Below are positions 1 through 47,591 of a DNA stretch of 47,591 nucleotides, piece by piece (within the stretch, counting starts at the first letter, position 1; every line of letters starts with the position of its first letter). The position numbers and the translations under genes were made by a program. Source of the stretch: a virus; the IMG/VR virus record IMGVR_UViG_2162886007_000002, positions 1 to 47,591 of that record; one strand, 5' to 3'. The notes under the pieces are model-generated. The model was not told the origin of the DNA. It made no database searches and saw only the letters and a list, made by a program, of their open reading frames with translations.

Positions 1-51
1 GCCGCCCGTTTCCACACGGCTACCCGGAACGGCTACCGCGCCAGCCGCTGC
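1..51. repeat. 51-bp terminal redundancy (left copy)
   Basis: Positions 1-51 are identical to 47541-47591. A reading frame continues smoothly across the joint, so the sequence closes into a 47,540-bp circle. The odd short length is typical of an assembler k-mer overlap on a circularly permuted or circular genome, although a short physical terminal repeat cannot be excluded. Confidence 0.95.
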
Positions 52-2612: not shown

Positions 2613-4084
2613 TACATTGCCAACCGGTCTTCAGCTGGGGTTTTCGGGTCATTGGCTGCCGGCTTCTGCGTAGGGTCGTCCGCTCCCGGTAACGCCAACA
2701 GGTCTTCCGCCTTGTTCGCTGCCTCCACCGCAGCCTTAAGCTTGGCCAAGTACTCGGGCGTCAAGTTGGTATAGGTGCCATCCTCAGCCAGCTGTTGGGC
2801 CACAATATACTCATCAACAACGCCCGCAGCCAAGTAAGCAGTATCACGCACCGACCGCGCCTGCTCAGTGGTAGCTTTTTCCGCGTCCGACATCTGGAAC
2901 AGGCTGTTCCAGGTGAAGCCCCAGTCCTTGAGTTCACTGCCCCACAGGGAGCGCTGCATGATCTTGTCCAGGATACGCAGGTTGGGGTTGAACTCGGTTT
3001 TCTGTGCTGCGCGGATGTTATCGTAGTAGTTGCTCAGGTCGCCTTCACCAGTGGAGTTTAGCCCTTTGGCAGCGCTGCCCAGCAAACGGGTTTCCGGAAT
3101 GTCAGCGGCGCCGGCTACGATGCCAAGGAAGCGGTCAAGCAAGTCACCCAGGCCGCTGAAGCTCTGTTGGTGCTGTTCAAAGGTTTCGTCCTCATCGAGC
3201 AGCATTACGTTGTTGACCGACTTGAGCAGCTTGGCCAGCGCGAAACGGGTTTGGATTTTCTCTTCCCCGCCCGGTTGCAGCAAGAAGTTCGTCAGGCCCT
3301 TGTACTTAATCACGTCAGTGGACGCTTCCGACACTAGACTAGCGCCACCGGCCACAGTCATGTCAGCGTTAACAATGGCCTCGAACACCCGGCGCAGGAC
3401 CGAGGCGCCCCAGTACGCGTGAAACTGCCGCTGCTTCATGTAGTAGGGCAGCTTGATACCGTCAAACGCCAGCACGCGGGAGCGGTGTATGCGAAAGGTC
3501 GAAGCGTTGGACAGCGTGTAGAACTCAGGTTCGCCAAACCCTGGCTGGGTTGGGTCCAGCTGAGTGTAGTCAGGCATGGCTTGAAGGCGGCCACACTCAA
3601 TAACGGTCAAGTGGGTCAGGCAGCCCTTGCCGAGCTTGTTAATGTCCAGCGGGGTGTCAGGCGAGCCGCCTTGAGCCTCATCCAAACCAATGATGATGCC
3701 AGCGCCGCCGTACAACCGGCCCCACTTCAGTGCCTCGTTGAACTTGCCGCAAATGTCCAGGTCCGTTTCCAGCTGGGTAAACTGCTCAATCTTGGCCGGC
3801 GCCGCTTGCGATGAGTCGAATTCGCGCCACTCGCGGGTCATGTCGTCGGGAATGATGTCAACGATCTTGCCCGCCAGCCAGTTTTCAACATACATGGCTT
3901 CAAGCGTGCGGTCGTCAAGCTGGTACTGCTCAACGTATTCGGTATGGCTGCGGCGGTCGTTGCCGGTGCCGAAGTTGGACACGAAGTTTTGCAGCGCATC
4001 AAGCTGCATAAAGAACTCACCCGAAACGGGCTTCTTGGCACTCGGCGTTGTGCGTTTCATGGGAATTACTTGTCCGCTGCTCAT
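2612..4084 (-). CDS. portal protein (DUF1073 family)
   Basis: 490 residues. The portal forms the dodecameric vertex through which DNA is packaged. The sequence resembles DUF1073 phage portals: an N-terminal region with WLAGKIVDIIPDDMTREWRE, a central LLGSAAKGLNSTGEGD stretch, and an acidic, Pro-rich C-terminus. It sits directly after terminase and before the gp7-like head gene. The ATG overlaps the terminase stop (ATGA). Automatic annotation often labels this family 'anti-CBASS Acb1-like'; length and position support portal. Confidence 0.88.
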   Translation of the reverse strand: MSSGQVIPMKRTTPSAKKPVSGEFFMQLDALQNFVSNFGTGNDRRSHTEYVEQYQLDDRTLEAMYVENWLAGKIVDIIPDDMTREWREFDSSQAAPAKIEQFTQLETDLDICGKFNEALKWGRLYGGAGIIIGLDEAQGGSPDTPLDINKLGKGCLTHLTVIECGRLQAMPDYTQLDPTQPGFGEPEFYTLSNASTFRIHRSRVLAFDGIKLPYYMKQRQFHAYWGASVLRRVFEAIVNADMTVAGGASLVSEASTDVIKYKGLTNFLLQPGGEEKIQTRFALAKLLKSVNNVMLLDEDETFEQHQQSFSGLGDLLDRFLGIVAGAADIPETRLLGSAAKGLNSTGEGDLSNYYDNIRAAQKTEFNPNLRILDKIMQRSLWGSELKDWGFTWNSLFQMSDAEKATTEQARSVRDTAYLAAGVVDEYIVAQQLAEDGTYTNLTPEYLAKLKAAVEAANKAEDLLALPGADDPTQKPAANDPKTPAEDRLAM

Positions 4085-6092: not shown

Positions 6093-6608
6093 GAGTATGC
6101 GGAACGGCTCGCTAGGAATCACCGGTTGCTTGGTCTTAGGGTTGAACCACACCGCCCGCCAGCGCCGTGAATTGACGATGTTGGGGCGTATACGGCTGCA
6201 CTCGAACGGCAGCGGTATCAGGAGTTTCACCAGCGTTGGCAGGCTGTCAACTGCTTCGGCACGGCCTTCCCAACCCGGCAGCAGCTTCGACTTGACCTTG
6301 AGCCAGCTACGACCCGCCCGGCACTTGGCGGCGGCCAGGAACGCCAACTCCAGAAAATAGGTGTTCTTCTTGGACTGGTATTGAGCGTACCAGTATTCGA
6401 AGCAATCCACGTAGCTCCAAAGCGCCATTTCGAGTAGGGTGCCGTCGTAGGGCACGTCCACAACGCGCTTAGCCTTGACGTCGGCTGCGAACTTGGCGCA
6501 GCGGTCCTGCATGGTAGTGATGTCAGGGGTCATTGAGTAGACCTTGTGAACAGGTTTGGTGCCGTCCAGGTCCAAGAGGTCGTCATCTTCCAGCGACAAG
6601 TCCATCAT
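6090..6608 (-). CDS. hypothetical protein, last gene of promoter A operon
   Basis: 172 residues from MMDLSLEDDDLLDLD. I chose 6608 over an upstream in-frame GTG because GGAG is well placed and the ATG overlaps the stop of the previous gene (ATGA). The N-terminus is acidic and the middle and C-terminus basic and Trp-rich (YWYAQYQSKKNTYFLE, RRWRAVWFNPK). No family was recognised. The gene ends in the late promoter -35 box. Confidence 0.75.
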   Translation of the reverse strand: MMDLSLEDDDLLDLDGTKPVHKVYSMTPDITTMQDRCAKFAADVKAKRVVDVPYDGTLLEMALWSYVDCFEYWYAQYQSKKNTYFLELAFLAAAKCRAGRSWLKVKSKLLPGWEGRAEAVDSLPTLVKLLIPLPFECSRIRPNIVNSRRWRAVWFNPKTKQPVIPSEPFRIL

Positions 6609-6805
6609 TGCCCAATCTCCACTTGTACACATTCTGACAAAGCAGGTGGTATAGCCCGCCGCCCCATGAAACCATCAGTCGCGGCGCTGGCTTTCTCAAC
6701 AGCGCGCTGCATGGCTTCGCATTCTACCTTCATAACGGGGGTGGAAGCCGTCCAAGTTGGGCCGGGGGCGCCAGATAACATTACCAGTACATACAAGATG
6801 CCCAT
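6605..6805 (-). CDS. small hypothetical protein, possibly exported
   Basis: 66 residues. The first 12 (MGILYVLVMLSG) are hydrophobic and could act as a short export signal or anchor, and the rest is soluble with two Cys. GGAG lies 6 bp before the ATG. It lies between two unknown genes and overlaps the next by 4 bp. No family was recognised. Confidence 0.65.
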   Translation of the reverse strand: MGILYVLVMLSGAPGPTWTASTPVMKVECEAMQRAVEKASAATDGFMGRRAIPPALSECVQVEIGQ

Positions 6806-6818
6806 GTATCGCTCCAGA

Positions 6819-7250
6819 TTAGGCCGCCTTTACAGCAAACTCAGGCAGGCGTTCGTAGTTGATATGGTAGTCAAGGCGCAGACGTTCGGCGGTCTGGCCG
6901 GTTTTGGTGTCAGTGATGTTGCCCCACCAGTAGTGGCCGTCAAACTCAACAGCCGAGTAGCTGAACCGGTCGGCCCAAACTTCTTTGGCGTACTGCATCA
7001 CAACACCGCTGCTGATGCGGGAGCCAAAGCGGAAACCGTGTAAGTTGCCATTGAGACGGCGCACTTCGATTTTAGCAGCTTGGGCCAGAACTTCGTGTTC
7101 GAAGCGCTTCGACACGACTACAGTACCGTTCTCTTTACACAGCAACCAGCGGTGGGTTTTCACCTTGGTTACGGTGAGCAGTTCGCCCGCGCAGTCCAGC
7201 TTGTAAGCGGCTGCGGCCTGGGCAACGTCAAAGGTAGAGTAGGTAGTCAT
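6819..7250 (-). CDS. hypothetical protein
   Basis: 143 residues, mixed alpha/beta composition, with no family recognised (MTTYSTFDVAQAAAAYKLDC...). It is preceded by the recurrent leader AACTCAACTGGAG, which supplies the ribosome-binding site, and by a GC-rich hairpin in the intergenic gap. That leader also precedes genes starting at 8675, 16256, 16555, 28330 and (altered) 29670, suggesting a shared translation or stability signal. Confidence 0.75.
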   Translation of the reverse strand: MTTYSTFDVAQAAAAYKLDCAGELLTVTKVKTHRWLLCKENGTVVVSKRFEHEVLAQAAKIEVRRLNGNLHGFRFGSRISSGVVMQYAKEVWADRFSYSAVEFDGHYWWGNITDTKTGQTAERLRLDYHINYERLPEFAVKAA

Positions 7251-7279
7251 GTCTTGGCGCTCCAGTTGAGTTCTACTAA

Positions 7280-7304
7280 CTCAGCCCCAGTTAAGGGGCT
7301 TGAG
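7280..7304 (-). promoter_or_regulatory. intercistronic hairpin plus conserved RBS leader
   Basis: AGCCCC and GGGGCT pair around a 6-nt loop (7283-7288 and 7295-7300, with CTCA/TGAG extending the stem). No U-run follows. AACTCAACTGGAG lies immediately downstream. The same module occurs at 16264-16306, so it is probably an RNA processing or protective hairpin rather than a terminator. Confidence 0.5.
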
Positions 7305-7318
7305 GTGGGTAGGGTTGG

Positions 7319-7555
7319 TTAGCCGAAAACGCAACCGATAATTGAGTCAGCAACAAACTCGATTGCTTCGTCGCTGCATTCACCGTCAGCGAAAGGCAAT
7401 TCAGGTTCATTTGTTGCGCAAAGGTCCATCAGGCGAGCGGCGTTAACCATGCCCATTTCTACGGCCTTAGCTTCAATCTGAGGGCCGTAGACTGACATCA
7501 GGCTTTCAAGCTTGGCGGCGTATTTGGTTTCGAATTCGGCCTGAGTCAGTTTCAT
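7319..7555 (-). CDS. small acidic hypothetical protein
   Basis: 78 residues, first gene after promoter A. It is acidic (ADGECSDEAIEFVADSI near the C-terminus), probably helical, and has no recognised family. AACGGAGCAAGACGAA precedes the ATG. As the first gene of a promoter with the shared phage signature it is probably an early host-interaction protein, an inference from position only. Confidence 0.7.
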   Translation of the reverse strand: MKLTQAEFETKYAAKLESLMSVYGPQIEAKAVEMGMVNAARLMDLCATNEPELPFADGECSDEAIEFVADSIIGCVFG

Positions 7556-7603
7556 TTCGTCTTGCTCCGTTGTTCGTTAAGGGCGCGGCGCCCTGTAGAA
7601 CGA

Positions 7604-7632
7604 ATTCTGGTTTACTTCGACAGAGTTGTCCA
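7604..7632 (-). promoter_or_regulatory. promoter A (TGGACA-17 bp-CAGAAT)
   Basis: Minus strand: TGGACA (complement of 7627-7632), 17-bp spacer, CAGAAT (complement of 7604-7609) followed by TCG. It is preceded by GAAAGTGG as in promoters B and D. It lacks the CCGAYCAGCGGTC dyad because a terminator occupies that position. Downstream, GGGCGC/GCGCCC forms a small hairpin (7581-7593). Confidence 0.75.
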
Positions 7633-7645
7633 CCACTTTCTTCAA

Positions 7646-7680
7646 CAAAAATGCCCCTAGCCGACGAACGGTAGGGGCAC
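7646..7680 (-). terminator. leftward terminator of promoter B operon
   Basis: Minus strand TGCCCCTA pairs with TAGGGGCA, followed by five U. It ends the operon whose last gene stops at 7698 and lies directly upstream of promoter A. Confidence 0.85.
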
Positions 7681-7697
7681 GGTGTGTGGGTTAGTGT

Positions 7698-8033
7698 TTA
7701 CAGAACGCGGTAGCCCAACTCTTCCGCTGACTCTACAGCTGCACCAAATGAGGCCCAACTATGAGAAATTACTTCATCGCTGTGCGCATCAAATACAGTA
7801 TACAGCTCTGTGCTGTTATCCCGTACGACACACGCGGGGCGCGCTTCCTTAGTGGTAGGCACCGCAGCGCGGAAGAACATAGCTGTATGGAACTTGCCCG
7901 CCTGGACGGCAAACGGCCCCATTTGCAGAGTCCAGCCCTTTTCATAAAGCTCCTGCATGTCCATGGCAGTGGGTGCTGGGTCGAACAGCACAACGCGGAA
8001 GTTGTCAGTCTTTTCGATGGTTTTGCAGGTCAC
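7698..8033 (-). CDS. hypothetical protein
   Basis: 111 residues, last gene of the promoter B operon, overlapping the previous gene by 29 bp. It contains an ELYEKGWTLQMGPF segment and a C-terminal EVISHSWASFGAAVESAEELGYRVL helix. No membrane segment or metal motif is visible and no family was recognised. Confidence 0.72.
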   Translation of the reverse strand: MTCKTIEKTDNFRVVLFDPAPTAMDMQELYEKGWTLQMGPFAVQAGKFHTAMFFRAAVPTTKEARPACVVRDNSTELYTVFDAHSDEVISHSWASFGAAVESAEELGYRVL

Positions 8034-8406
8034 GGTGGGTTACTCCATTCAGGCGGTTTAGGGTATCTACGGAAACTTGGTTGGCGATTGACAGCACTTC
8101 CTTAACGCTGAAGTACACGACCTCAAGGCCGCCGCTTGCCGCAGGGGCGAGCACCTTAAGGCGCGGCACAGGGAAGCCTTTGGATTGGTCAATGTCAACA
8201 CCCTTGCTGAAGCAGACGGTGTTGAGGAATTCGAACATCTGGCCGTTTGGGAACCAGTCTTCCATAACGCGGATTTGGTTAGAAACGCCTACCCCAGAAT
8301 GAGTTTGTACAGCAGCTGTGCGGCCTGGGCCAAACCCATAAATGGAGCGGGTGAGTGGAGCCGGGCCTTTGCACAGAGCCAAGAAATCTTCACGTTGCAT
8401 GTTCAT
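8005..8406 (-). CDS. hypothetical protein
   Basis: 133 residues from MNMQREDFLALC, with AGAGG 6-7 bp before the ATG. The sequence is mixed, with a basic C-terminus ending DLQNHRKD, and no family was recognised. It follows the 27-residue membrane peptide gene after 9 bp. Confidence 0.72.
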   Translation of the reverse strand: MNMQREDFLALCKGPAPLTRSIYGFGPGRTAAVQTHSGVGVSNQIRVMEDWFPNGQMFEFLNTVCFSKGVDIDQSKGFPVPRLKVLAPAASGGLEVVYFSVKEVLSIANQVSVDTLNRLNGVTHRDLQNHRKD

Positions 8407-8415
8407 AGAAACCTC

Positions 8416-8499
8416 TTAAGCGCACAATACCAGAAGGACAACGGTGAGCGCGGCGTACAGCCACGTCCACCATAAGAGTAGTCGAGTAAATGCCTTCAC
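8416..8499 (-). CDS. 27-residue membrane peptide (GTG start)
   Basis: Reads MKAFTRLLLWWTWLYAALTV then VLLVLCA: a basic N-terminus followed by one hydrophobic membrane segment. The GTG overlaps the stop of the preceding gene as GTGA, a coupling arrangement used throughout this genome. It fills what would otherwise be a 90-bp gap. The small size and alternative start make it less certain than its neighbours; function is unknown. Confidence 0.55.
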   Translation of the reverse strand: MKAFTRLLLWWTWLYAALTVVLLVLCA

Positions 8500-8675
8500 A
8501 GCGTAACGACCAGGATCTTACCGCGCAGCAAGTCAGCTGCATCCATATAGCTTACAGAGAGGGCGTTAGCAACTGCGTCGAGCAACGAGCGGATTGCCAT
8601 AGTTTCGCCGCTGTAGCAAGCGCCTTCGTAGTCCACCCCGTCAAACGAAACCTTGGCTTGGAAGAAAGTGTGCAT
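8496..8675 (-). CDS. small hypothetical protein, first gene of promoter B operon
   Basis: 59 residues from MHTFFQAKVSFDG. The frame is open further upstream to 8747, but that stretch contains the promoter B -10 box, so a longer protein could not be made from this promoter. The chosen start sits right after the leader CTCAACTGGAGATTCACATG, identical to that of the gene at 28330. The protein is probably soluble and no family was recognised. Confidence 0.75.
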   Translation of the reverse strand: MHTFFQAKVSFDGVDYEGACYSGETMAIRSLLDAVANALSVSYMDAADLLRGKILVVTL

Positions 8676-8696
8676 GTGAATCTCCAGTTGAGTAGG
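8673..8696 (-). repeat. 24-nt RBS leader, copy 1
   Basis: This 24-nt stretch, ending CTCAACTGGAGATTCACATG on the minus strand, is identical to 28309-28332 on the plus strand, although the proteins that follow are unrelated. It contains the ribosome-binding site and start codon. Confidence 0.9.
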
Positions 8697-8717
8697 GCAC
8701 CGCTGCCCGTGGACCGA

Positions 8718-8746
8718 ATTCTGGTGTACGTCGACAACCTTGTCCA
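8718..8746 (-). promoter_or_regulatory. promoter B (TGGACA-17 bp-CAGAAT)
   Basis: Minus strand: TGGACA (complement of 8741-8746), 17-bp spacer containing GTCGAC, CAGAAT (complement of 8718-8723). GAAAG lies immediately upstream of the -35 region as in promoters A and D. Confidence 0.8.
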
Positions 8747-8757
8747 CTTCTTTCGTT

Positions 8758-8770
8758 GACCGCTGGTCGG
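8758..8770 (-). promoter_or_regulatory. operator-like dyad upstream of promoter B
   Basis: CCGACCAGCGGTC on the minus strand, 12 of 13 identical to the sites at promoters C and D. CCG and CGG form a dyad around 5 bp. It lies 11 bp upstream of the -35 box. Confidence 0.65.
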
Positions 8771-8780
8771 GTTCTTCGGT

Positions 8781-8901
8781 AAGAACCGGAAGAACACTAA
8801 GACCACTAAATCGGCATCAGATTTGCCCTATATGTATCAGAGCACGAACTTTGCAAAATACCCCATAGAAAGGGCAGCGGTTTAGCGTTCTTCCGGTTCT
8901 T
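8781..8901. repeat. 121-bp intergenic element, copy 1
   Basis: Bounded by AAGAACCGGAAGAACACTAA (8781-8800) and its inverted partner at 8882-8901 (19 of 20 matching, with a perfect 15-bp outer part). A second 121-bp copy lies at 16857-16977 with the same arms and the shared core AGCACGAACTTTGC. No gene overlaps it. Together with 8902-8985 it fills the 310-bp gap between the first gene of operon B and the endolysin. Confidence 0.85.
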
Positions 8902-8936
8902 TTCAGCGCCGAAGCCATATCAGTATAGGTCAAAGT

Positions 8937-8987
8937 CCAGAACACTAAATCCTTCTTAGTGTTCTGGTTAGTGTACTTACGGTTCTT
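8937..8987. repeat. perfect 12-bp inverted repeat and further copy of the arm motif
   Basis: CCAGAACACTAA (8937-8948) and TTAGTGTTCTGG (8956-8967) form a perfect hairpin with a 7-nt loop. They reuse the AGAACACTAA half of the 121-bp element arm. The next 20 bp (8968-8987) are another inverted arm copy, AAGAACCGTAAGTACACTAA on the minus strand, running into the endolysin stop codon. Confidence 0.75.
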
Positions 8988-9522
8988 AAAGTACGACGGT
9001 GTCGGCCTTAATCCTGGCTGTAGGGTCCGTGAAGTTTACATCCTTAACGTAGCGTGCCCAGTTGGTGTCAAAATCCTCTTGGGTGGCCGCGCCCACAACG
9101 CTGTTCCAGTATTTCTTGTAGTACTTCCACATACCTTCTTGGTCACCGAACAGGGGCAGGGCGCCGGGAAAGCGGCGGTAGTTCATGCGAGCCAGGGCCG
9201 TGGCGTAGTTGAGGTTGCCAACCATTCCGATGAGGCTGGGGTATGCCTGCTCGGCGGGGCTGAGGAACTTAAACAGCAATTCGCGCTTGTCGCCTACCGC
9301 GAAGTTCTTGTACAGGTCTGCGATGGTGGCCGGCTCCATTTGCGGCATACCAAGTGCTGGGCCTTTCACTTGCTTAAGGTAGTCGCCGCAGTGGGATTCC
9401 TGGGCAAACGTCGCCAGTAGTAGCTGGCGGGCTGCGGAGCTGTTGTACTCAAACCCGCTGTAAATTTTCATGGCGTCCAGCACCGGGAAAATTATGTAGT
9501 CGTGTAGGACCTGAGGATTCAT
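8986..9522 (-). CDS. endolysin, lysozyme/transglycosylase-like
   Basis: 178 residues with no signal peptide. LLLATFAQESHCGDYLKQ (about 34-51), with a probable catalytic Glu in QES, is followed by GPALGMPQMEP, the pattern of a group of phage peptidoglycan hydrolases. It would need the adjacent holins to reach the cell wall. It reads leftward, divergent from the holin-spanin cassette beginning 81 bp away. GGAG lies 9 bp before the ATG. A TATAAT (complement of 9540-9545) in the divergent gap may be its -10 box, without a convincing -35. Confidence 0.85.
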   Translation of the reverse strand: MNPQVLHDYIIFPVLDAMKIYSGFEYNSSAARQLLLATFAQESHCGDYLKQVKGPALGMPQMEPATIADLYKNFAVGDKRELLFKFLSPAEQAYPSLIGMVGNLNYATALARMNYRRFPGALPLFGDQEGMWKYYKKYWNSVVGAATQEDFDTNWARYVKDVNFTDPTARIKADTVVL

Positions 9523-9603
9523 GTGTACTATCTCCGTAAATTATAGTAGGGGTAGCCTTTTGAGGCTGATGAATCATAACACAACAACTCAGGGGGCTGA
9601 AGG

Positions 9604-9930
9604 GTGGATACAGAAGAGTTTAGAAAGTGGCTGTCGGCGCCGGGGGTTATAGCCCTAACGGCGGCGGCGGTGCGCTTCATGATCACAGGGAAGGAGGAAA
9701 GGCCGGGGAGGGTCTTGGGCTACTTAGTGGCTGCGGGTGGACTCGCTTGGCTGCTCGGCCCTTATCTATCGAAACGCGACTACGGCCCCGAGGAAATTGC
9801 ACTGGCAAGCTGCATCCTCGGATTTGTTATACCCAACTTGCTTGGCGGTGTTATGGGACTGGGGGCGCAGTTCGCTAAAGATCCGGCAGGCTTCGTTATT
9901 GACATCCTTTCGAGGTTCAAAAAGAAATGA
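9604..9930 (+). CDS. holin
   Basis: 108 residues from a GTG start preceded by a purine-rich site. Three hydrophobic segments (about 13-28, 38-56 and 64-86) and a Lys-rich C-terminus (SRFKKK) match a class I holin that permeabilises the inner membrane at lysis. It is the first gene of the rightward lysis cassette, overlaps the next gene by 4 bp, and lies opposite the endolysin. Confidence 0.82.
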   Translation: MDTEEFRKWLSAPGVIALTAAAVRFMITGKEERPGRVLGYLVAAGGLAWLLGPYLSKRDYGPEEIALASCILGFVIPNLLGGVMGLGAQFAKDPAGFVIDILSRFKKK

Positions 9931-10259
9931 CACTACTGTTCGCTTTGGATACATTGAGCTTACTCGCCGCGCTCTGTACGGCGTTGTACACCGTCTTCAT
10001 CATGATCAAGTGGCCGCCTGGGCGCGACCCGAGACCCATGGCCCCGCTGTTGGCTTTGGCGCTCGCCTTCATCGTGCTGAAGATGCACCCGTACATGGGT
10101 TGGGAGGACGCTTACGGGAAGCTACGCGACTACGCTTGGCGCGGGTGGTACATCGTGGCGTTCATTGAGTTCATCTTGCTGATTCGCCTGTTTGGTCGGC
10201 GTCGTGATGGTTGCGGCGTTGGGGCGGCCAGCGCTGTCATTAAGAAGGGGCGCAAATGA
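9927..10259 (+). CDS. second holin-like/antiholin-like membrane protein
   Basis: 110 residues with hydrophobic segments near 2-27, 38-52 and 74-88 and a basic C-terminus (GRRRDG...KKGRK). It lies between holin and spanin with 4-bp overlaps on both sides. Tandem small membrane proteins here often form a holin and antiholin pair; which one triggers lysis cannot be told from sequence. Confidence 0.72.
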   Translation: MTLLFALDTLSLLAALCTALYTVFIMIKWPPGRDPRPMAPLLALALAFIVLKMHPYMGWEDAYGKLRDYAWRGWYIVAFIEFILLIRLFGRRRDGCGVGAASAVIKKGRK

Positions 10260-10786
10260 TGGAAGCCCTCGTAGCGCGGTATCTGTTGCCTGTTGTAGCG
10301 GTTGCTGCGCTACTCGGGGGCGGTTGGCTTTATCTCCACAACTTGCACAGCGATATCACCGACCTGGAAGGGCAGGTGCAGACCCAAACCGACCGCGCAA
10401 ATCTGGCTGTACATGTTGCAGCGAGCAGCACGGCCACAACCCAAATTGTCACCAAAACCGTGGAAAAGGTTGTCGAAGTTAAGGTGAAAGGTGACACCAT
10501 CGTACAGAAGGTGCCTGTTTATGTTACGCAAAAGGCTGATGCCAATTGTGTTGTCCCTCTTGGCGCTGTCAGCGTGCTCAACGCCGCCGCCCGCAACGTG
10601 CTACTTCCCGGAAGTGCCGGCGCAATTCAAGAAGCCCCGAGCGGCGTTGCCCTTAGTACCGTTACCGGCACCGCAGCTGAATGGGCCGGGCGTTACTGGC
10701 AGCTAGCTGCGGAATACGACGGGTTTTTGGAATGGGTCGAAACCCAGGGCGCGTTGGCGCGGGGAGGGGGTTTACAGCAGAAATGA
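10256..10786 (+). CDS. Rz: i-spanin (Rz-like)
   Basis: 176 residues: one N-terminal membrane anchor (about 9-25, LLPVVAVAALLGGGWLYL) followed by a periplasmic region including a probable coiled coil (about 30-75). The class spans the periplasm with an o-spanin to fuse inner and outer membranes. A second gene with a lipobox is nested in another frame (10521-10706), which makes the call firm and implies a Gram-negative host. Two adjacent ATGs are possible starts. Confidence 0.87.
   Translation: MMEALVARYLLPVVAVAALLGGGWLYLHNLHSDITDLEGQVQTQTDRANLAVHVAASSTATTQIVTKTVEKVVEVKVKGDTIVQKVPVYVTQKADANCVVPLGAVSVLNAAARNVLLPGSAGAIQEAPSGVALSTVTGTAAEWAGRYWQLAAEYDGFLEWVETQGALARGGGLQQK
10521..10706 (+). CDS. 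Rz1: o-spanin (Rz1-like lipoprotein) nested within Rz
   Basis: 61 residues, entirely inside the Rz gene in a different frame. MLRKRLMPIVLSLLALSAC gives a basic start, hydrophobic core and lipobox (LSAC); the cysteine is followed by STPPP, and the rest is Pro-rich (PAQFKKPRAALPLVPLPAPQ). That is the hallmark of Rz1. GAAGG lies just before the ATG. Confidence 0.88.
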   Translation: MLRKRLMPIVLSLLALSACSTPPPATCYFPEVPAQFKKPRAALPLVPLPAPQLNGPGVTGS

Positions 10787-28253: not shown

Positions 28254-28264
28254 GACGAAAGTGG

Positions 28265-28293
28265 TGGACAACCCCACCGCCGTCGACCAGAAT
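28265..28293 (+). promoter_or_regulatory. promoter D (TGGACA-17 bp-CAGAAT)
   Basis: TGGACA 28265-28270, 17-bp spacer with GTCGAC next to the -10 box, CAGAAT 28288-28293 followed by TCG. GAAAGTGG precedes it as in promoter A. Confidence 0.8.
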
Positions 28294-28308
28294 TCGTTTT
28301 GCAAGACA

Positions 28309-28332
28309 CCTACTCAACTGGAGATTCACATG
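28309..28332 (+). repeat. 24-nt RBS leader, copy 2
   Basis: Identical to the minus-strand leader at 8673-8696, ending CTCAACTGGAGATTCACATG. It fixes the start of the downstream gene at 28330. Confidence 0.9.
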
Positions 28333-29421
28333 TCCGCCACGCTTACCGCTGCAACTCACTACCACCCAATCACGAAGACCTTATTCGAGTTGGGCAAGTG
28401 CGGCTTCTGCAATGTAACCGCCGCGCTTACTCCGCGCATTCAGGACTCCATGCCAAGTGGCTCCAAAATTTGGGGCGAAGAAAAGTTGCCAGCCCGCGAA
28501 ATGTTTGCGGAAGACGGGGAAACCATTTGCTGTAGCGTCTGCGAAGGGATTCCGTACTACATTGAAAACGTGAAGTCGGAATGGGCAATCATTCACCGGC
28601 AAACGCAAACGGTGGCTGGTATGAAAAAATCAGAGAAAGGTGCAAGGGAAGCCTGCCGGTTGTTAAACAACCCGCCGGCCAACGACAGTACCCAAGTTGA
28701 TGTAAACGCGGTGGTGGAAGGCGACTTGACAAATGCTTCCACGGCCATTAGACTCCCCGGCATGGTGGTTATCCGGCTCGCTGGCGACTTACCAAACGGG
28801 TTGAAACGTGGCACCCACGTACAAATCCCGATTGACCGCTTAACCTCACTCATTTCAGAAATAGGAGCTACACCCATGGCTAAGCCAACTGATGGTCGCA
28901 AAACCGCTAAAGACCTGATCCGCGCCCTCATCATCAAGAAGCGCACCGACGACCAAATCATTGCCGAAGTCCAGGCCGCGTTCCCTGAGTCCAATGCCGA
29001 CAAGAAGCATTGCACCAAGTACCGCCGCGAACTGTTGGTTGAAGGCCTGATTGGCGCTGACCTTGCCGCTGTCGGCAGCCCGGACCACAAAGAATGGGCA
29101 GCTGCCAACCCGGCCCTGGCCAAGAAAGGCCCGCATGGCGAGTACCACAAAGCCGCCGCCGAAGCCGCGAAAGCTGCACCGGTTGCTAAAGTAGCGCCGG
29201 CCAAACCGGTTGCGAAGGCTGCGCCAGTTGCCAAGGCCGCTGCAAAGCCGGCCCCAAAGCCAGCAAAGGCTGCGTCTGCAAAACCTGCCGCGAAAGCTAC
29301 CCCGGCGCCTGTATCGAAGCCTACCACCGCCGCCAAGAAGCCCGCCGCAGCCAAAGCAGCGCCAAAAGCTAAGGGCGCTGCCGCAAAGCCCGCTGCTCAA
29401 GCTGGTACGCTTGATCTCTAA
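28330..29421 (+). CDS. zinc-knuckle protein with histone-H1-like C-terminal tail
   Basis: 363 residues. The frame is open back to 28261, but that stretch is promoter D, so 28330 after the conserved leader is the start. The N-terminal part has CGFC (24-27) and CCSVC (67-71), a likely zinc site. The middle (about 183-275) is a small charged helical domain. From about 270 to 355 the sequence is repeated Ala-Lys-Pro (KPAKAASAKPAAKATPAP style), like histone H1 or bacterial H1-like proteins, and likely coats DNA. A strong internal start exists at 28876. Confidence 0.75.
   Translation: MSATLTAATHYHPITKTLFELGKCGFCNVTAALTPRIQDSMPSGSKIWGEEKLPAREMFAEDGETICCSVCEGIPYYIENVKSEWAIIHRQTQTVAGMKKSEKGAREACRLLNNPPANDSTQVDVNAVVEGDLTNASTAIRLPGMVVIRLAGDLPNGLKRGTHVQIPIDRLTSLISEIGATPMAKPTDGRKTAKDLIRALIIKKRTDDQIIAEVQAAFPESNADKKHCTKYRRELLVEGLIGADLAAVGSPDHKEWAAANPALAKKGPHGEYHKAAAEAAKAAPVAKVAPAKPVAKAAPVAKAAAKPAPKPAKAASAKPAAKATPAPVSKPTTAAKKPAAAKAAPKAKGAAAKPAAQAGTLDL
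28876..29421 (+). CDS. possible internal product: short histone-H1-like protein
   Basis: In-frame ATG at 28876 (MAKPTDGRKTAKDLIRALII) is preceded by AGGAG with an 8-nt spacing, a better site than most starts here. It would yield a 181-residue protein holding only the helical domain and the Ala-Lys-Pro tail, without the zinc part. Either a real second product or a relic of a two-gene fusion. Confidence 0.5.
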   Translation: MAKPTDGRKTAKDLIRALIIKKRTDDQIIAEVQAAFPESNADKKHCTKYRRELLVEGLIGADLAAVGSPDHKEWAAANPALAKKGPHGEYHKAAAEAAKAAPVAKVAPAKPVAKAAPVAKAAAKPAPKPAKAASAKPAAKATPAPVSKPTTAAKKPAAAKAAPKAKGAAAKPAAQAGTLDL

Positions 29422-29971: not shown

Positions 29972-31291
29972 ATGCAGACGTTTAAAATGTATGACGTAAC
30001 GCCGTATCGTGGTTTGACATTGCTGCAACTGTTGAAGCAATTTCACGACAAGTTTGGCACCCCCTACGATGAGGCACCGCGCCACTTGGGCCGGGCTGAA
30101 TTGGAGTTTCGTTTGGTGTGCCACACCGAGGAAGCGAACGAATACCTGGACGCGGTCAGCGAAGGCAATTTGGTTGAAGCCATCGACGCGCTGGGTGATG
30201 AAATCTATTTCCTTACCGGCACTGCGCATCGTCAGGGCTTTATGGATCTGGTAATCCCAACAATCAACATGGTGCCAATGGACGTTGGCCCGCGCTTCTT
30301 GCCGCTGGCTGCACAAGAGCTGCGCCGGGTGCGCCATAACGAAGTGTTGAAAGAATACGAAGTGCGCGCTCGTACCGGGGAGCTGTGGCAACAGAAGTTG
30401 GCGCTGAAAGAAGCGCTCAACACTTTCTACCGCACTGCAATGATGCACGGCTTCGACATCCAGGAAGCGCTGCTACGCATCCATGCGGCCAACATGGCTA
30501 AGGACGTTGACCCGGCCAAGCAACGCCGCACCAAAGCGCTGGCGGAAGAAGGTATTGACGCTGCGCCAATGCTGGAAATCACTAAGCCCGATGGTTGGCT
30601 AGCCCCGTACTTGGGTGATTTGGTTGGTCTCGGCCCGTACGAAGCGCTGGAAGAAGAGTTCGCCAGCATTGAGCGCGGTTACCTCACCCCACCTTGCCCG
30701 GACTTGTCCAAGCTGCATGGTCTGGTTACCATTGACGGCCCTGATGCTAGCGGCAAAAGCACCTTGGCTGCTCGTATCGCAGAGCTGACCGGCGGGCAGG
30801 TTATTCACTTGACCTGGAGCCCACGCCTTGAAGCTGTGATGGACGAATACCGTACTTCCGCTATCAAGTACGCGGCAGTGCTGGCCCAGAACGGCGTTGT
30901 TGTGCTGGAACGGCCTTGGCTCTCCCACCCGGTTTATGCAGAAGTGTACCGCGACGGCGCTTATCAGGCTGAACACGTTCACAACTGGAAGAACCTCACA
31001 GAGCATAACGCACGACTCAACATCGTCGCGCTGCCGGGCTGTTCCAAGGAATGGCTGAAGAACTACCTCCTGATGTGCAGCCAGCGTGATGAGTTGCACG
31101 GGCCAAACGCCGGTAAGGCTATGGCGGTTTATGAGGGTTTCCGTGACGCCTTCAGCGGTGACGCGGGCCCCGAGCGGCAGCCAGCGTACAACGTTGACGT
31201 GTACGACATGCAACAGTACCCAAACCCTGTTGACATCGACACCTTCATCCTGAACAATGTTGTGCCGCATCTCACCCCTAAGGAGCTGTAA
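29972..31291 (+). CDS. MazG-like pyrophosphohydrolase fused to a dNMP kinase
   Basis: 439 residues. The N-terminal half looks like an all-alpha NTP pyrophosphohydrolase: EEANEYLDA (53-61) and EAIDALGDEIYFLTG (69-83) give the EExxE and ExxD metal-binding pattern. The C-terminal part (about 250-435) is a P-loop deoxynucleotide kinase of the thymidylate kinase type, with TIDGPDASGKST (about 254-265) and a VVLERPW region. The pair could hydrolyse one nucleotide and phosphorylate another. It opens the nucleotide gene group. Confidence 0.82.
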   Translation: MQTFKMYDVTPYRGLTLLQLLKQFHDKFGTPYDEAPRHLGRAELEFRLVCHTEEANEYLDAVSEGNLVEAIDALGDEIYFLTGTAHRQGFMDLVIPTINMVPMDVGPRFLPLAAQELRRVRHNEVLKEYEVRARTGELWQQKLALKEALNTFYRTAMMHGFDIQEALLRIHAANMAKDVDPAKQRRTKALAEEGIDAAPMLEITKPDGWLAPYLGDLVGLGPYEALEEEFASIERGYLTPPCPDLSKLHGLVTIDGPDASGKSTLAARIAELTGGQVIHLTWSPRLEAVMDEYRTSAIKYAAVLAQNGVVVLERPWLSHPVYAEVYRDGAYQAEHVHNWKNLTEHNARLNIVALPGCSKEWLKNYLLMCSQRDELHGPNAGKAMAVYEGFRDAFSGDAGPERQPAYNVDVYDMQQYPNPVDIDTFILNNVVPHLTPKEL

Positions 31292-31295
31292 TCAG

Positions 31296-32264
31296 ATGGC
31301 CTCTCTTGAAGACCTGAAAGTCAACGTAGCTCATATCCCCGCGTTCAGTCATGGGATTGAGTTCCTGTACCCGCGCACTGAAGACGGCCCTTCACTCTAC
31401 GCGCTCCTTGAGGCTTCCTGGACGGTGATGGCGCTCATCCAGGGCATCCGCACTAAGGTTTGGGAAGCTGATATGTCAGTGCCCAACCCGGTTGGCGCTG
31501 CCTGGGCCAAAGCAGGGCTCATCGAAGTTCGGGAACAGCTCGCCACGCCTGACACTGATTATGCCCAGTACGCTGTACTCACCCCGGCTGGGCGCCGGGT
31601 CATTGACTGCGGTGGCTTGCTGGAGTATGAGTTCAGCATGATGCAACAGCAGCTGGACGGCAACCTCAAGACCAGCCCAGCTAAGTACGAAAAGCTGCGC
31701 CAAGGACTGGATAACTACGCGGTGGCCTTCCTACCCGACATGCGCCGCTGGGTAACACAGCAAATCGGCCTGGACGGTGGCAAGATGTTCGATTTCTGCG
31801 GCGGTACTGGCGGCTATCTGCATGAGTTCCTGCGCACTTGGCCACAAGCCAACGGTATGCTGTTCGACAGAATGCCGGGCGTGCTGCAACCCGCAGACGT
31901 GGTGCTGCAAATGGGTGTCAAGCAAGGTGACGCCATGGCAGATGACCGCTTCTTTAAAGAGCAGGCCGGCGCCTACGACATTGTGTTGATGAGCGAGATC
32001 CTGCACTGCAAAGGTCCAGTGGAACGCCACTTCCTGCTGCGCCGCGCCAAGTCGCTGCTCAAGCCAACCGGCGTGTTGTTGGTCATCGAGCAGTACCCAA
32101 ACCTGCGGTTAGAGTGGCGCATGACCGATATGACCGACGGCGGCCAATGCCTTACAGAACAGGACGTTTCCAACGAAGCCTGGGAAGCTGGGTTTCAACC
32201 GCATTCGGGCATTCACAGCCTTAGCCACTACGGTATCCGTTTCGATCAACGAGGTGAAGCATGA
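31296..32264 (+). CDS. O-methyltransferase-like protein (SAM-dependent)
   Basis: 322 residues from MASLEDLKVNVAHIPAFSHG, with AAGGAG ahead (an upstream in-frame start at 31257 overlaps the kinase gene). A winged-helix-like N-terminal domain (about 30-110) precedes a Rossmann core with MFDFCGGTGGYLHEF and a later LMSEILHCKG and LLVIEQYPN, as in plant and bacterial small-molecule O-methyltransferases. Its substrate is unknown. Placement between a nucleotide kinase and a thymidylate synthase homologue hints at a nucleotide or base target. Confidence 0.78.
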   Translation: MASLEDLKVNVAHIPAFSHGIEFLYPRTEDGPSLYALLEASWTVMALIQGIRTKVWEADMSVPNPVGAAWAKAGLIEVREQLATPDTDYAQYAVLTPAGRRVIDCGGLLEYEFSMMQQQLDGNLKTSPAKYEKLRQGLDNYAVAFLPDMRRWVTQQIGLDGGKMFDFCGGTGGYLHEFLRTWPQANGMLFDRMPGVLQPADVVLQMGVKQGDAMADDRFFKEQAGAYDIVLMSEILHCKGPVERHFLLRRAKSLLKPTGVLLVIEQYPNLRLEWRMTDMTDGGQCLTEQDVSNEAWEAGFQPHSGIHSLSHYGIRFDQRGEA

Positions 32265-33049
32265 GTCAGTTGAAACCCCTTTCCATTTCCTGGGAAGACG
32301 TGTACCACGCCAACTTGATGCAGGCGTTCTTGGCCCCAGGCATGGAGCTGGTACACCATACGTTTGACCTCGGTATTCAGTGGGGTATTGATGACCGTAG
32401 CATCATGAACCCGCAGCGCGGTTTCCGCCGTGAGTTCTCCCAGGTTATGGCTGATTGGATTCTGGACGGCAAAGTGCAGGTCAGCGAAGCTATGTTGGCG
32501 CTCAACCCTAACGCCGCCAAGTTCGCCACCGTCCTTGATGACGAAAAGCACGGTTACCACGTTACCGCCTACGGCCCGCGCATCAAGTCGCAAATTCAGT
32601 TCGTTGTCGATGAACTGCAACGCTCCCCAGACAGCCGCCGGGCTTGCATCATGATGCTGGCCCCTTCTGACCAGTTCGTGGCTGAGGCCATGGCGGTTGA
32701 GGCTACCAAGTGCGAATACCTTTGCACCTACGGCTTCAACTTCCGGCTGCGCAGCGGGCGTTTGGACATGCACGTTGCCATGCGCTCCAACAACTACACC
32801 ACGACCGTTTGCCAAGACGTGTATGTGTTTGCGGAGTTGCAAAAGCACATTGCCGGGTTGCTGGGTGTACCTGAAGGTCACTATTTCCACTTCACCACGT
32901 CGGGGCATATCGTTAAGGGGGAAGAAGCCAAGGCGGCTGCAATTCTCAACGCCTACCGCCAAACCGCGCCGTTTGTGGGGCAGTGGCCGAAAGAATGGCA
33001 CGAAGCTTGGGATGCGTTCGAGGCTGTTGAGTGGGATAGATTTGAATGA
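32261..33049 (+). CDS. thymidylate synthase / dCMP hydroxymethylase-like protein
   Basis: 262 residues. SRRA (125-128) matches the phosphate-binding Arg pair of ThyA. Cys155 fits the catalytic Cys, 20 residues before the RSNN block (R175), as in ThyA. In the next motif the residue that is Asn177 in E. coli ThyA is Asp here (CQDVYVF), the change that favours a cytosine substrate in T4 dCMP hydroxymethylase. Overlaps both neighbours by 4 bp. Expected product: 5-methyl- or 5-hydroxymethyl-pyrimidine nucleotide. Confidence 0.8.
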   Translation: MSQLKPLSISWEDVYHANLMQAFLAPGMELVHHTFDLGIQWGIDDRSIMNPQRGFRREFSQVMADWILDGKVQVSEAMLALNPNAAKFATVLDDEKHGYHVTAYGPRIKSQIQFVVDELQRSPDSRRACIMMLAPSDQFVAEAMAVEATKCEYLCTYGFNFRLRSGRLDMHVAMRSNNYTTTVCQDVYVFAELQKHIAGLLGVPEGHYFHFTTSGHIVKGEEAKAAAILNAYRQTAPFVGQWPKEWHEAWDAFEAVEWDRFE

Positions 33050-33471
33050 AACTGGACCTCGTTGAAGCGCTTGCGCATGCCAACGGGTTTGCAGCGGTTG
33101 CGGGGGGTTGCCCCCGTGCTGCTGTTGCAACCTACCTTTATGACCGGGAAGGGATTCGCCGCACCCGCGCTGCTAACGTGCGCTTTGATGGCAAGTGTGA
33201 TTGCAACGACGGCGCTGACACCCTGACCACTGCAAGCTCAACGTGCTGCGCCCAGCATAGTGAAGTGCGGGCTTTGATGACGGCAGCAAAGGAGGGCTGG
33301 TATCCGTTCTTGCACATGGCGCTGGTGACCCGACCGCCATGTATCAAGTGCCTGCCGTACCTCTTGGAGAGCCCCTTAGAAGTGCTGGCAGTTGGGCGGG
33401 AATGGCCTGACCGGGACGGAACCCAGACTATTTGGGAGAAGTTCGGAAGGGATTGGTGCTGGATAGACTGA
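33046..33471 (+). CDS. deoxycytidylate deaminase-like protein
   Basis: 141 residues. HSEVRAL (71-77) and PPCIKC (97-102) form the zinc and catalytic Glu signature of cytidine/dCMP deaminases. Extra Cys residues (KCDC near 50-53, TCC near 67-68) may bind a second zinc as in T4 dCMP deaminase. It ends the rightward operon next to a bidirectional terminator, coupled to the TS-like gene by 4 bp. Confidence 0.87.
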   Translation: MKLDLVEALAHANGFAAVAGGCPRAAVATYLYDREGIRRTRAANVRFDGKCDCNDGADTLTTASSTCCAQHSEVRALMTAAKEGWYPFLHMALVTRPPCIKCLPYLLESPLEVLAVGREWPDRDGTQTIWEKFGRDWCWID

Positions 33472-47489: not shown

Positions 47490-47591
47490 TTACGCTACGG
47501 CGTCGGCTTTAACGCGAATGAGCATCAGCGCACCAACTGCGCCGCCCGTTTCCACACGGCTACCCGGAACGGCTACCGCGCCAGCCGCTGC
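47490..47591 (-). CDS. capsid cement/decoration-like protein (C-terminal end)
   Basis: The last 16 residues and stop (AVGALMLIRVKADAVA) of the gene that starts at 414. Bases 47541-47591 repeat 1-51, so this part is the same gene read across the circular joint. It ends 42 bp before the major capsid start. Confidence 0.75.
   Translation of the reverse strand, partial: AAAGAVAVPGSRVETGGAVGALMLIRVKADAVA
47541..47591. repeat. 51-bp terminal redundancy (right copy)
   Basis: Exact copy of positions 1-51; see the left copy. Confidence 0.95.

What the first reader, a model, noticed from the sequence alone, without database searches (positions are those of the whole stretch)
29972..33471. Four-gene nucleotide cassette with signs of modified-base synthesis
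MazG-dNMP kinase fusion, O-methyltransferase-like protein, ThyA-family protein and dCMP deaminase-like protein are tightly coupled. The ThyA homologue keeps the Arg pair and catalytic Cys155 but has Asp in place of ThyA Asn177, the known switch in T4 dCMP hydroxymethylase. A kinase and a pyrophosphohydrolase are the partners needed to build one dNTP and remove another. Inference: phage DNA may contain a 5-substituted pyrimidine, possibly further altered by the methyltransferase.
Basis: partly seen in the sequence, partly recalled or inferred. Interest (0 to 1): 0.75.

Follow-up and report, generated by a model that had tools for sequence, protein, structure and literature searches.

The report
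Phage cytosine hydroxylation-and-methylation gene cassette
An uncultured phage carries a four-gene set that most likely replaces cytosine in its DNA by a capped form, probably 5-methoxycytosine, using a flavin-type cytosine hydroxylase and a methyltransferase that is not found in any of 50,697 phage records searched.

Summary
The four coupled genes are real: MazG–kinase fusion, methyltransferase (MT), thymidylate-synthase-like (TS) protein and dCMP-deaminase-like protein. The window is a terminally redundant 47.6-kb myovirus genome. The same cassette recurs in four related phage contigs. A fifth, unrelated contig has a rearranged version with a homologous MT and a TS–MazG fusion.

The Asp-for-Asn177 observation is right and points to dCMP. 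The T4 analogy is not. The TS lacks the folate-activating Glu58 (Met63) and Asp169 (Asn178), which T4 gp42 keeps. It groups with RB69-type 5-hydroxy-dCMP synthases. Its top sequence and fold match in the PDB is AfhB ("dCMP hydroxylase", "monooxygenase dependent on riboflavin", 9iqc/9iqu). All five residues I find diagnostic of that class are present.

The MT matches phenol-type O-methyltransferases (top fold hit: tyrosine O-methyltransferase MfnG), with the catalytic His and Glu invariant across relatives.

Best reading: dCMP → 5-hydroxy-dCMP → 5-methoxy-dCMP → DNA. Known phages cap 5-hydroxycytosine with sugars; here a methyl group takes that role. The enzyme classes are well supported; the 5-methoxy product is inference. 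5-methoxy-dC has the same mass as 5-hydroxymethyl-dC, so mass alone cannot settle it.

The parts
29972..31291 (+). MazG-like nucleotide pyrophosphohydrolase (aa ~15-220) fused to a P-loop deoxynucleoside monophosphate kinase (aa ~250-439)
   Evidence: PF01503 1.3e-8; phrog_671 2e-20 and phrog_761 kinase 1.2e-10; Walker A GPDASGKS and EExxE/DxxxDE acidic residues invariant in relatives; the kinase in the Thanatos 5-hydroxy-dC cluster is also phrog_761
31296..32264 (+). SAM-dependent O-methyltransferase, PF00891 (Methyltransf_2) type, 322 aa; start refined from 31257 to 31296
   Evidence: PF00891 1.5e-10; Foldseek top hit MfnG tyrosine O-methyltransferase 2.3e-14; DxxGGxG, His237 and Glu265 invariant in 6 members; Shine-Dalgarno AAGGAG
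32004..32006 (+). MT His237, position of the general base of phenol O-methyltransferases
   Evidence: aligned with His of MfnG, AlpH and 6clw; invariant in 6 members
32261..33049 (+). TS-superfamily dCMP C5-hydroxylase (AfhB / 5-hydroxy-dCMP synthase class), 262 aa
   Evidence: profile match to 9iqc/9iqu 5e-34, versus MilA 8e-22 and T4 dCMP hydroxymethylase 1.3e-6; Foldseek top 9iqc 4e-11; tree
32447..32449 (+). Met63 in place of the folate-activating Glu58 (E. coli ThyA) / Glu60 (T4 gp42)
32723..32728 (+). Cys155 (nucleophile) and Thr156 (ThyA His147)
32792..32794 (+). Asn178 in place of ThyA Asp169; 15/15 in the AfhB class, 1/12 outside it
32816..32818 (+). Asp186 in place of ThyA Asn177 (dCMP specificity)
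33046..33471 (+). dCMP-deaminase-like protein with intact zinc site (His71, Glu73, Cys99, Cys102)
   Evidence: phrog_174 5.5e-4; invariant residues

Best explanation
The cassette makes a capped 5-hydroxycytosine, most likely 5-methoxy-2'-deoxycytidine, that replaces cytosine in the phage DNA. Proposed path: the MazG domain hydrolyses dCTP to dCMP. The TS-like enzyme, with Asp186 selecting cytosine and Cys155 as nucleophile, hydroxylates C5 of dCMP with flavin and O2 to give 5-hydroxy-dCMP. The O-methyltransferase methylates that phenol-like hydroxyl with SAM to give 5-methoxy-dCMP. The fused kinase phosphorylates it, a host kinase makes the triphosphate and the phage PolA incorporates it. The deaminase removes leftover dCMP as dUMP. 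Shown by sequence: gene set, coupling, catalytic residues and class assignment of the TS and MT. Inferred: flavin chemistry (from PDB titles of relatives), methylation at O5 and at the mononucleotide stage, and degree of replacement. Confidence by step: modified-cytosine cassette 0.85; 5-hydroxylation rather than hydroxymethylation 0.75; methyl cap on that oxygen 0.6.
For: TS: Asp177, Thr147 and Cys146 as in dCMP enzymes, but Glu58 to Met, Asp169 to Asn and Gly173 to Thr, as in RB69, Thanatos, CHI14 and Maestro (Phe, Asn, Val), not as in T4, M6, AXL3 or ThyA. Five class-specific residues (L133, D137, E152, Y153, N178) are 15/15 inside the class. With the diagnostic columns removed, the Glu-less enzymes form one clade, support 91/94. 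Best PDB match by profile is 9iqc/9iqu at 5e-34, against 8e-22 for MilA and 1.3e-6 for T4 dCMP hydroxymethylase. Best Foldseek match is 9iqc, 'Monooxygenase dependent on riboflavin with dCMP and FAD'. 9iqc is nearly identical to RB69 ORF048. Mosigvirus DNA (RB69, NP) carries sugars on 5-hydroxy-dC made by a '5-hodCMP synthase' (PMC13390438). MT: O-methyltransferase fold with conserved His237/Glu265. The MT+TS+MazG+deaminase set recurs in L001, L002, L003 and L036 and, rearranged, in the unrelated L021, whose MT is specifically related to this one (62.8 bits, and no PDB match). No glycosyltransferase was found among the window ORFs scanned.
Against: No chemistry is known for this phage; it is uncultured. 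Identity to RB69 ORF048 is only 24%, and the Glu-less clade support (91/94) falls just short of the strict threshold. Several window ORFs have no family match, so another tailoring enzyme could be missed. The MT could methylate a different atom or act on polymerised DNA. Both structure models have modest confidence (pLDDT 62-65, 5-sequence alignments), so the fold rankings are supportive only.
Confidence: 0.5

Rival explanations
1. T4-like route: the TS-like enzyme is a folate-dependent dCMP hydroxymethylase and the MT makes 5-methoxymethyl-dC or acts elsewhere.
For: Asp177 and Thr147 match T4 gp42. Modified-cytosine contigs carry TS + PRA-PH + deaminase sets (PMC8670742). AXL3 has a comparable cassette with a hydroxymethylase-type TS and its DNA resists 35 of 37 enzymes (PMC7504290).
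Against: The glutamate conserved in all TS/CH/dCH enzymes for folate activation (PMC6400193) is Met in this family, Asp169 is Asn, and the enzyme is much closer to AfhB than to T4 dCMP hydroxymethylase.
Confidence: 0.2
2. The TS makes 5-hydroxy-dCMP, but the MT is not the capping enzyme; 5-hydroxy-dC stays bare or is capped by an unrecognised glycosyltransferase, and the MT methylates another atom or product.
For: Known AfhB-class phages glycosylate (PMC13390438). Some window ORFs have no family match.
Against: MT lies between the kinase and TS and is coupled to TS in all five family members and in unrelated L021; no glycosyltransferase or sugar-nucleotide genes were found; the phrog_3891 gene that follows TS in RB69-like phages is absent from the cassette.
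Confidence: 0.2
3. Ordinary pool enzymes: a divergent thymidylate synthase with dCMP deaminase, kinase and MazG boosts dTTP and the MT is unrelated.
For: Database names for relatives are mostly 'thymidylate synthase'; the gene set resembles a dCTP to dTTP route.
Against: Asp177, Thr147, and loss of Glu58, Asp169 and Trp80 do not fit known dUMP methylation.
Confidence: 0.07

Closest known systems
AfhB / RB69-type 5-hydroxy-dCMP synthase (PDB 9iqc, 9iqu; RB69 ORF048)
   Same: TS superfamily, Asp177/Thr147/Cys146, loss of Glu58, Asp169 to Asn, E152-Y153 and D137 signature; neighbouring phrog_761 kinase in Thanatos
   Different: about 24% identity; the RB69-type locus has a phrog_3891 gene and sugar genes next to it, and the DNA is arabinosylated; here an O-methyltransferase takes that place and MazG is fused to the kinase
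T4 gp42 dCMP hydroxymethylase
   Same: TS fold, dCMP-selecting Asp, catalytic Cys and phosphate-binding Arg
   Different: T4 keeps Glu60 and the Asp169 equivalent of the folate enzymes; 16% identity to the window protein
Stenotrophomonas phage AXL3 gp27-gp31 and ctUtU524 cassette
   Same: methyltransferase, MazG, kinase, TS-like and dCMP deaminase genes in one block; AXL3 DNA resists enzymes with G/C sites
   Different: hydroxymethylase-type TS (Glu58, Asp169 kept); MT of a different family (Methyltransf_23/phrog_4752), separate MazG and kinase genes
MetaGPA 5-carbamoyloxymethyl-cytosine clusters (PMC8670742)
   Same: TS with Asp177 plus PRA-PH and deaminase domains; an extra enzyme caps the new oxygen
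   Different: carbamoyltransferase caps a hydroxymethyl group; methyltransferases are not mentioned in that paper's main text
MfnG and other PF00891 phenol O-methyltransferases
   Same: two-part architecture with a C-terminal Rossmann domain, catalytic His and Glu positions
   Different: cellular secondary metabolism; about 18% identity; no match for this MT in PHROGs or the phage records

Membership tests
AfhB-class dCMP 5-hydroxylase (5-hodCMP synthase) | TS fold with Cys nucleophile and Asp at position 177 | tested here: met
   Cys155, Asp186
AfhB-class dCMP 5-hydroxylase (5-hodCMP synthase) | loss of folate-activating Glu58 and of Asp169 | tested here: met
   Met63, Asn178
AfhB-class dCMP 5-hydroxylase (5-hodCMP synthase) | groups with RB69/AfhB in a tree with diagnostic columns removed | tested here: inconclusive
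   one clade, support 91/94, just under the strict 95/80 star
AfhB-class dCMP 5-hydroxylase (5-hodCMP synthase) | FAD binding and +16 product from dCMP | not testable with these tools
   needs protein; only PDB titles of relatives
T4-type dCMP hydroxymethylase | Glu60 for methylene-tetrahydrofolate activation (PMC6400193) | tested here: not met
   Met63 in the window, Met in the 4 close relatives
T4-type dCMP hydroxymethylase | Asp179 (ThyA 177) for dCMP | tested here: met
   Asp186
Thymidylate synthase (ThyA) | Asn177, His147, Glu58, Asp169 | tested here: not met
   Asp, Thr, Met, Asn
PF00891 O-methyltransferase | profile score above Pfam gathering cut-off | tested here: met
   41.2 bits against 22.3
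PF00891 O-methyltransferase | catalytic His and Glu | tested here: met
   His237, Glu265 invariant in 6 members and His aligned to MfnG/AlpH/6clw
PF00891 O-methyltransferase | O-methylation of 5-hydroxy-dCMP | not testable with these tools
   needs assay
dCMP deaminase | HxE and PCxxC zinc site | tested here: met
   His71, Glu73, Cys99, Cys102; overall profile score below Pfam cut-off
MazG/PRA-PH pyrophosphohydrolase | Acidic metal-binding residues and profile match | tested here: met
   E53 E54 E57, D72, D76 E77 invariant; PF01503 35.5 bits against 21.3

The most novel reading that the evidence does not exclude
A phage DNA base not described before in the literature I could search, 5-methoxy-2'-deoxycytidine, made by flavin-dependent C5 hydroxylation of dCMP followed by SAM-dependent O-methylation.
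Probability: 0.42. Interest if true: 0.82.

Novelty: new variant of a known kind. Interest (0 to 1): 0.72.

Why it matters
Sugar-capped 5-hydroxycytosine in phage DNA is a very recent discovery. A methyl-capped version would add a new viral DNA base, a new role for phenol-type O-methyltransferases, and a base that host restriction and sugar-directed defences should handle differently. It also gives a simple rule: a missing Glu58 and an Asn at ThyA position 169 separate dCMP hydroxylases from hydroxymethylases among the hundreds of phage proteins now labelled thymidylate synthase or dCMP hydroxymethylase. 5-methoxy-dC and 5-hydroxymethyl-dC are isomers, so mass-only identifications of hmdC deserve a second look where the TS is of this class.

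Tried and rejected
Nucleotide search of half the window against phage records: no match. MT against 50,697 phage records: no match for the window MT or the L021 MT, and no PHROG. The only genome-contig scan gave one short, unconvincing match (L022). A mixed alignment of eight TS proteins was too divergent for pattern search. I considered that AXL3 might be the same system; its TS keeps Glu58/Asp169 and its MT is of another family, so it is analogous, not the same. I considered that the 300-aa gene after TS in RB69-like phages might be required and have a counterpart here; it is phrog_3891, unknown function, with no solved relative, and no counterpart was seen in the cassette. The preprint on biosynthesis of glycosylated 5-hydroxycytosine and the Cell Host Microbe paper on arabinosyl-hydroxy-cytosine are cited by PMC13390438; the preprint is not held and I did not find the other, so I rely on that paper's summary. 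No paper held combines 5-methoxycytosine and phage, and none describes PDB 9iqc/9iqu.
Full report
What is there. The window is a virus record of 47,591 bases with an exact 51-base terminal direct repeat, so it is probably a complete genome. Structural genes include a tail sheath and baseplate, so it is a myovirus; replication genes include a PolA-type polymerase, SNF2-type helicase, exonuclease and primase. At 29972-33471 four coupled + strand genes encode a MazG–kinase fusion, an O-methyltransferase-like protein, a TS-superfamily protein and a deaminase-like protein. The MT most likely starts at 31296, not 31257 (AAGGAG upstream; conservation begins there).

The TS-like protein. In the MetaGPA study, positions 177 and 147 were the two most associated with modified-cytosine contigs, with mostly Asp at 177 (PMC8670742). 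[quoted passage not shown]), and here it is Met63. ThyA Asp169 is Asn178 and Gly173 is Thr182. Loss of Glu58, Asn at 169 and loss of Gly173 are also found in RB69 ORF048, Thanatos TH1_062, CHI14, Maestro, three Rhizobium/Agrobacterium phages, PAU and PTm5, and not in T4, M6, Ab19, AXL3, ctUtU524, vipetofem, GodonK or one of the two BF486P3 proteins. Five positions (L133, D137, E152, Y153, N178 in window numbering) are identical in 15 of 15 Glu-less proteins and rare outside. A tree built without the diagnostic columns puts the Glu-less proteins on one side of a branch, support 91/94; support is good but not beyond the strict threshold.

Function of that class. Mosigvirus phages (RB69, NP) carry arabinose directly on 5-hydroxy-dC, whose monophosphate is made by a "5-hodCMP synthase" of the TS superfamily (PMC13390438, section 7). 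Thanatos carries a deoxypentose O-linked directly to cytosine (PMC12838424). PDB entries 9iqc ("Monooxygenase dependent on riboflavin with dCMP and FAD") and 9iqu ("phage HY126 dCMP hydroxylase-AfhB") are nearly identical to RB69 ORF048. The window family profile matches them at 5e-34, ahead of MilA (8e-22), ThyA (1.8e-12) and T4 dCMP hydroxymethylase (1.3e-6); Foldseek ranks 9iqc first, though the model is of modest confidence (mean pLDDT 62.5). Loss of the folate residues is what a flavin enzyme would show. Inferred mechanism: Cys155 adds to C6 of dCMP as in TS, C5 attacks a flavin hydroperoxide, and elimination gives 5-hydroxy-dCMP.

The methyltransferase. It passes the Pfam cut-off for PF00891. 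Its model (mean pLDDT 64.7; Rossmann core mostly 80-94) matches MfnG, a tyrosine O-methyltransferase, then plant and bacterial phenol O-methyltransferases. The SAM motif, His237 (aligned with the His of MfnG, AlpH and 6clw) and Glu265, 28 residues further, are invariant in six members; in caffeic acid O-methyltransferase the catalytic His269 and Glu297 have the same spacing (own knowledge). Phenol-type chemistry suits 5-hydroxycytosine, an acidic ring hydroxyl, better than the alcohol of 5-hydroxymethylcytosine (inference). A cap would also hide a base that is otherwise known as an oxidative lesion (own knowledge; inference).

Recurrence. The same four genes in the same order occur in L001, L002 and L003 (TS 57-71%, MT 41-63% identity) and in more distant L036 (TS 43%, MT 37%), where all diagnostic TS residues and the MT His are kept. 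L021, a 34.9-kb contig with no match to the window's polymerase or helicase in the 12.4 kb held, has MT, then a TS of the same class fused to MazG, then a dCMP deaminase. Its MT is specifically related to the window MT (62.8 bits over 166 residues with the shared SEILHCK motif) while it has no PDB match at 0.01. In the tree L021 TS is not the sister of the window TS, though that part is weakly supported, so MT and this TS class have either been joined more than once or moved together. The MT family is absent from 50,697 phage records.

Pool enzymes. The kinase domain belongs to phrog_761, the family of the kinase in the Thanatos cluster. MazG acidic residues and the deaminase zinc site are intact. 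A dCTP pyrophosphatase, a dCMP deaminase and a TS-like enzyme are also the candidate modification genes of Thanatos, at separate places in its genome. Assigning the MazG domain to dCTP is inference.

Comparison. AXL3 shows that a similar cassette can go with whole-genome protection: 35 of 37 enzymes fail and only two A/T-only enzymes cut (PMC7504290). Yet AXL3 and ctUtU524 carry the hydroxymethylase type of TS and another MT family, so the two cassettes look like parallel solutions.

Verdict.

Noticed in passing
L005 (MT536174.2, AXL3) 6569-10603; L006 (MW202621.1) 6709-10604: AXL3 'thymidylate synthase' gp28 and ctUtU524 'pyrimidine hmase' have Asp177, Thr147, Glu58 and Asp169: predicted dCMP hydroxymethylases, with a phrog_4752-type methyltransferase nearby. 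AXL3 DNA resistance to G/C-site enzymes would fit a methylated or otherwise capped 5hmC.
   Followed up: partly
L012 25460-26362, L013 3055-3966, L016 3043-3987, L010 5618-6649, L032 3701-4708: A ~300-aa protein of unknown function (phrog_3891) follows the AfhB-class TS in T4-like and Rhizobium/Agrobacterium phages; conserved motifs (HPFRISDK, TDPND, FHPGLAEFIYF) look glycosyltransferase-like to me but no match was found. In RB69 two shorter ORFs lie in its place.
   Followed up: partly
L021 6512-7537: Natural fusion of an AfhB-class TS with a MazG-like pyrophosphatase.
   Followed up: yes
phages collection, 483 records matching the window TS: Many AfhB-class proteins are annotated as thymidylate synthase or dCMP hydroxymethylase (e.g. 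Maestro, Atu_ph04); the Glu58/Asp169 rule suggests many of these names are wrong.
   Followed up: partly
L027 (Papyrus) 2875-3876; L029 (BF486P3) 1039-1800: Odd TS homologues: Papyrus has Asn177 with Arg at 58 and Asn at 169; BF486P3 has a second TS with Leu at 58 and Asp at 177. Their chemistry is unclear.
   Followed up: no
L015 (Sphingomonas phage PAU) 4890-9971: AfhB-class TS next to dTDP-sugar biosynthesis genes, suggesting another sugar on 5-hydroxycytosine.
   Followed up: no
window 1-51 and 47541-47591: Exact 51-base terminal direct repeat, suggesting a complete genome.
   Followed up: yes
window 28261-29421: 386-aa protein with a long Ala/Lys/Pro-rich C-terminal tail; similar proteins lie upstream of the cassette in L001, L003 and L036; no confident family match.
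   Followed up: no
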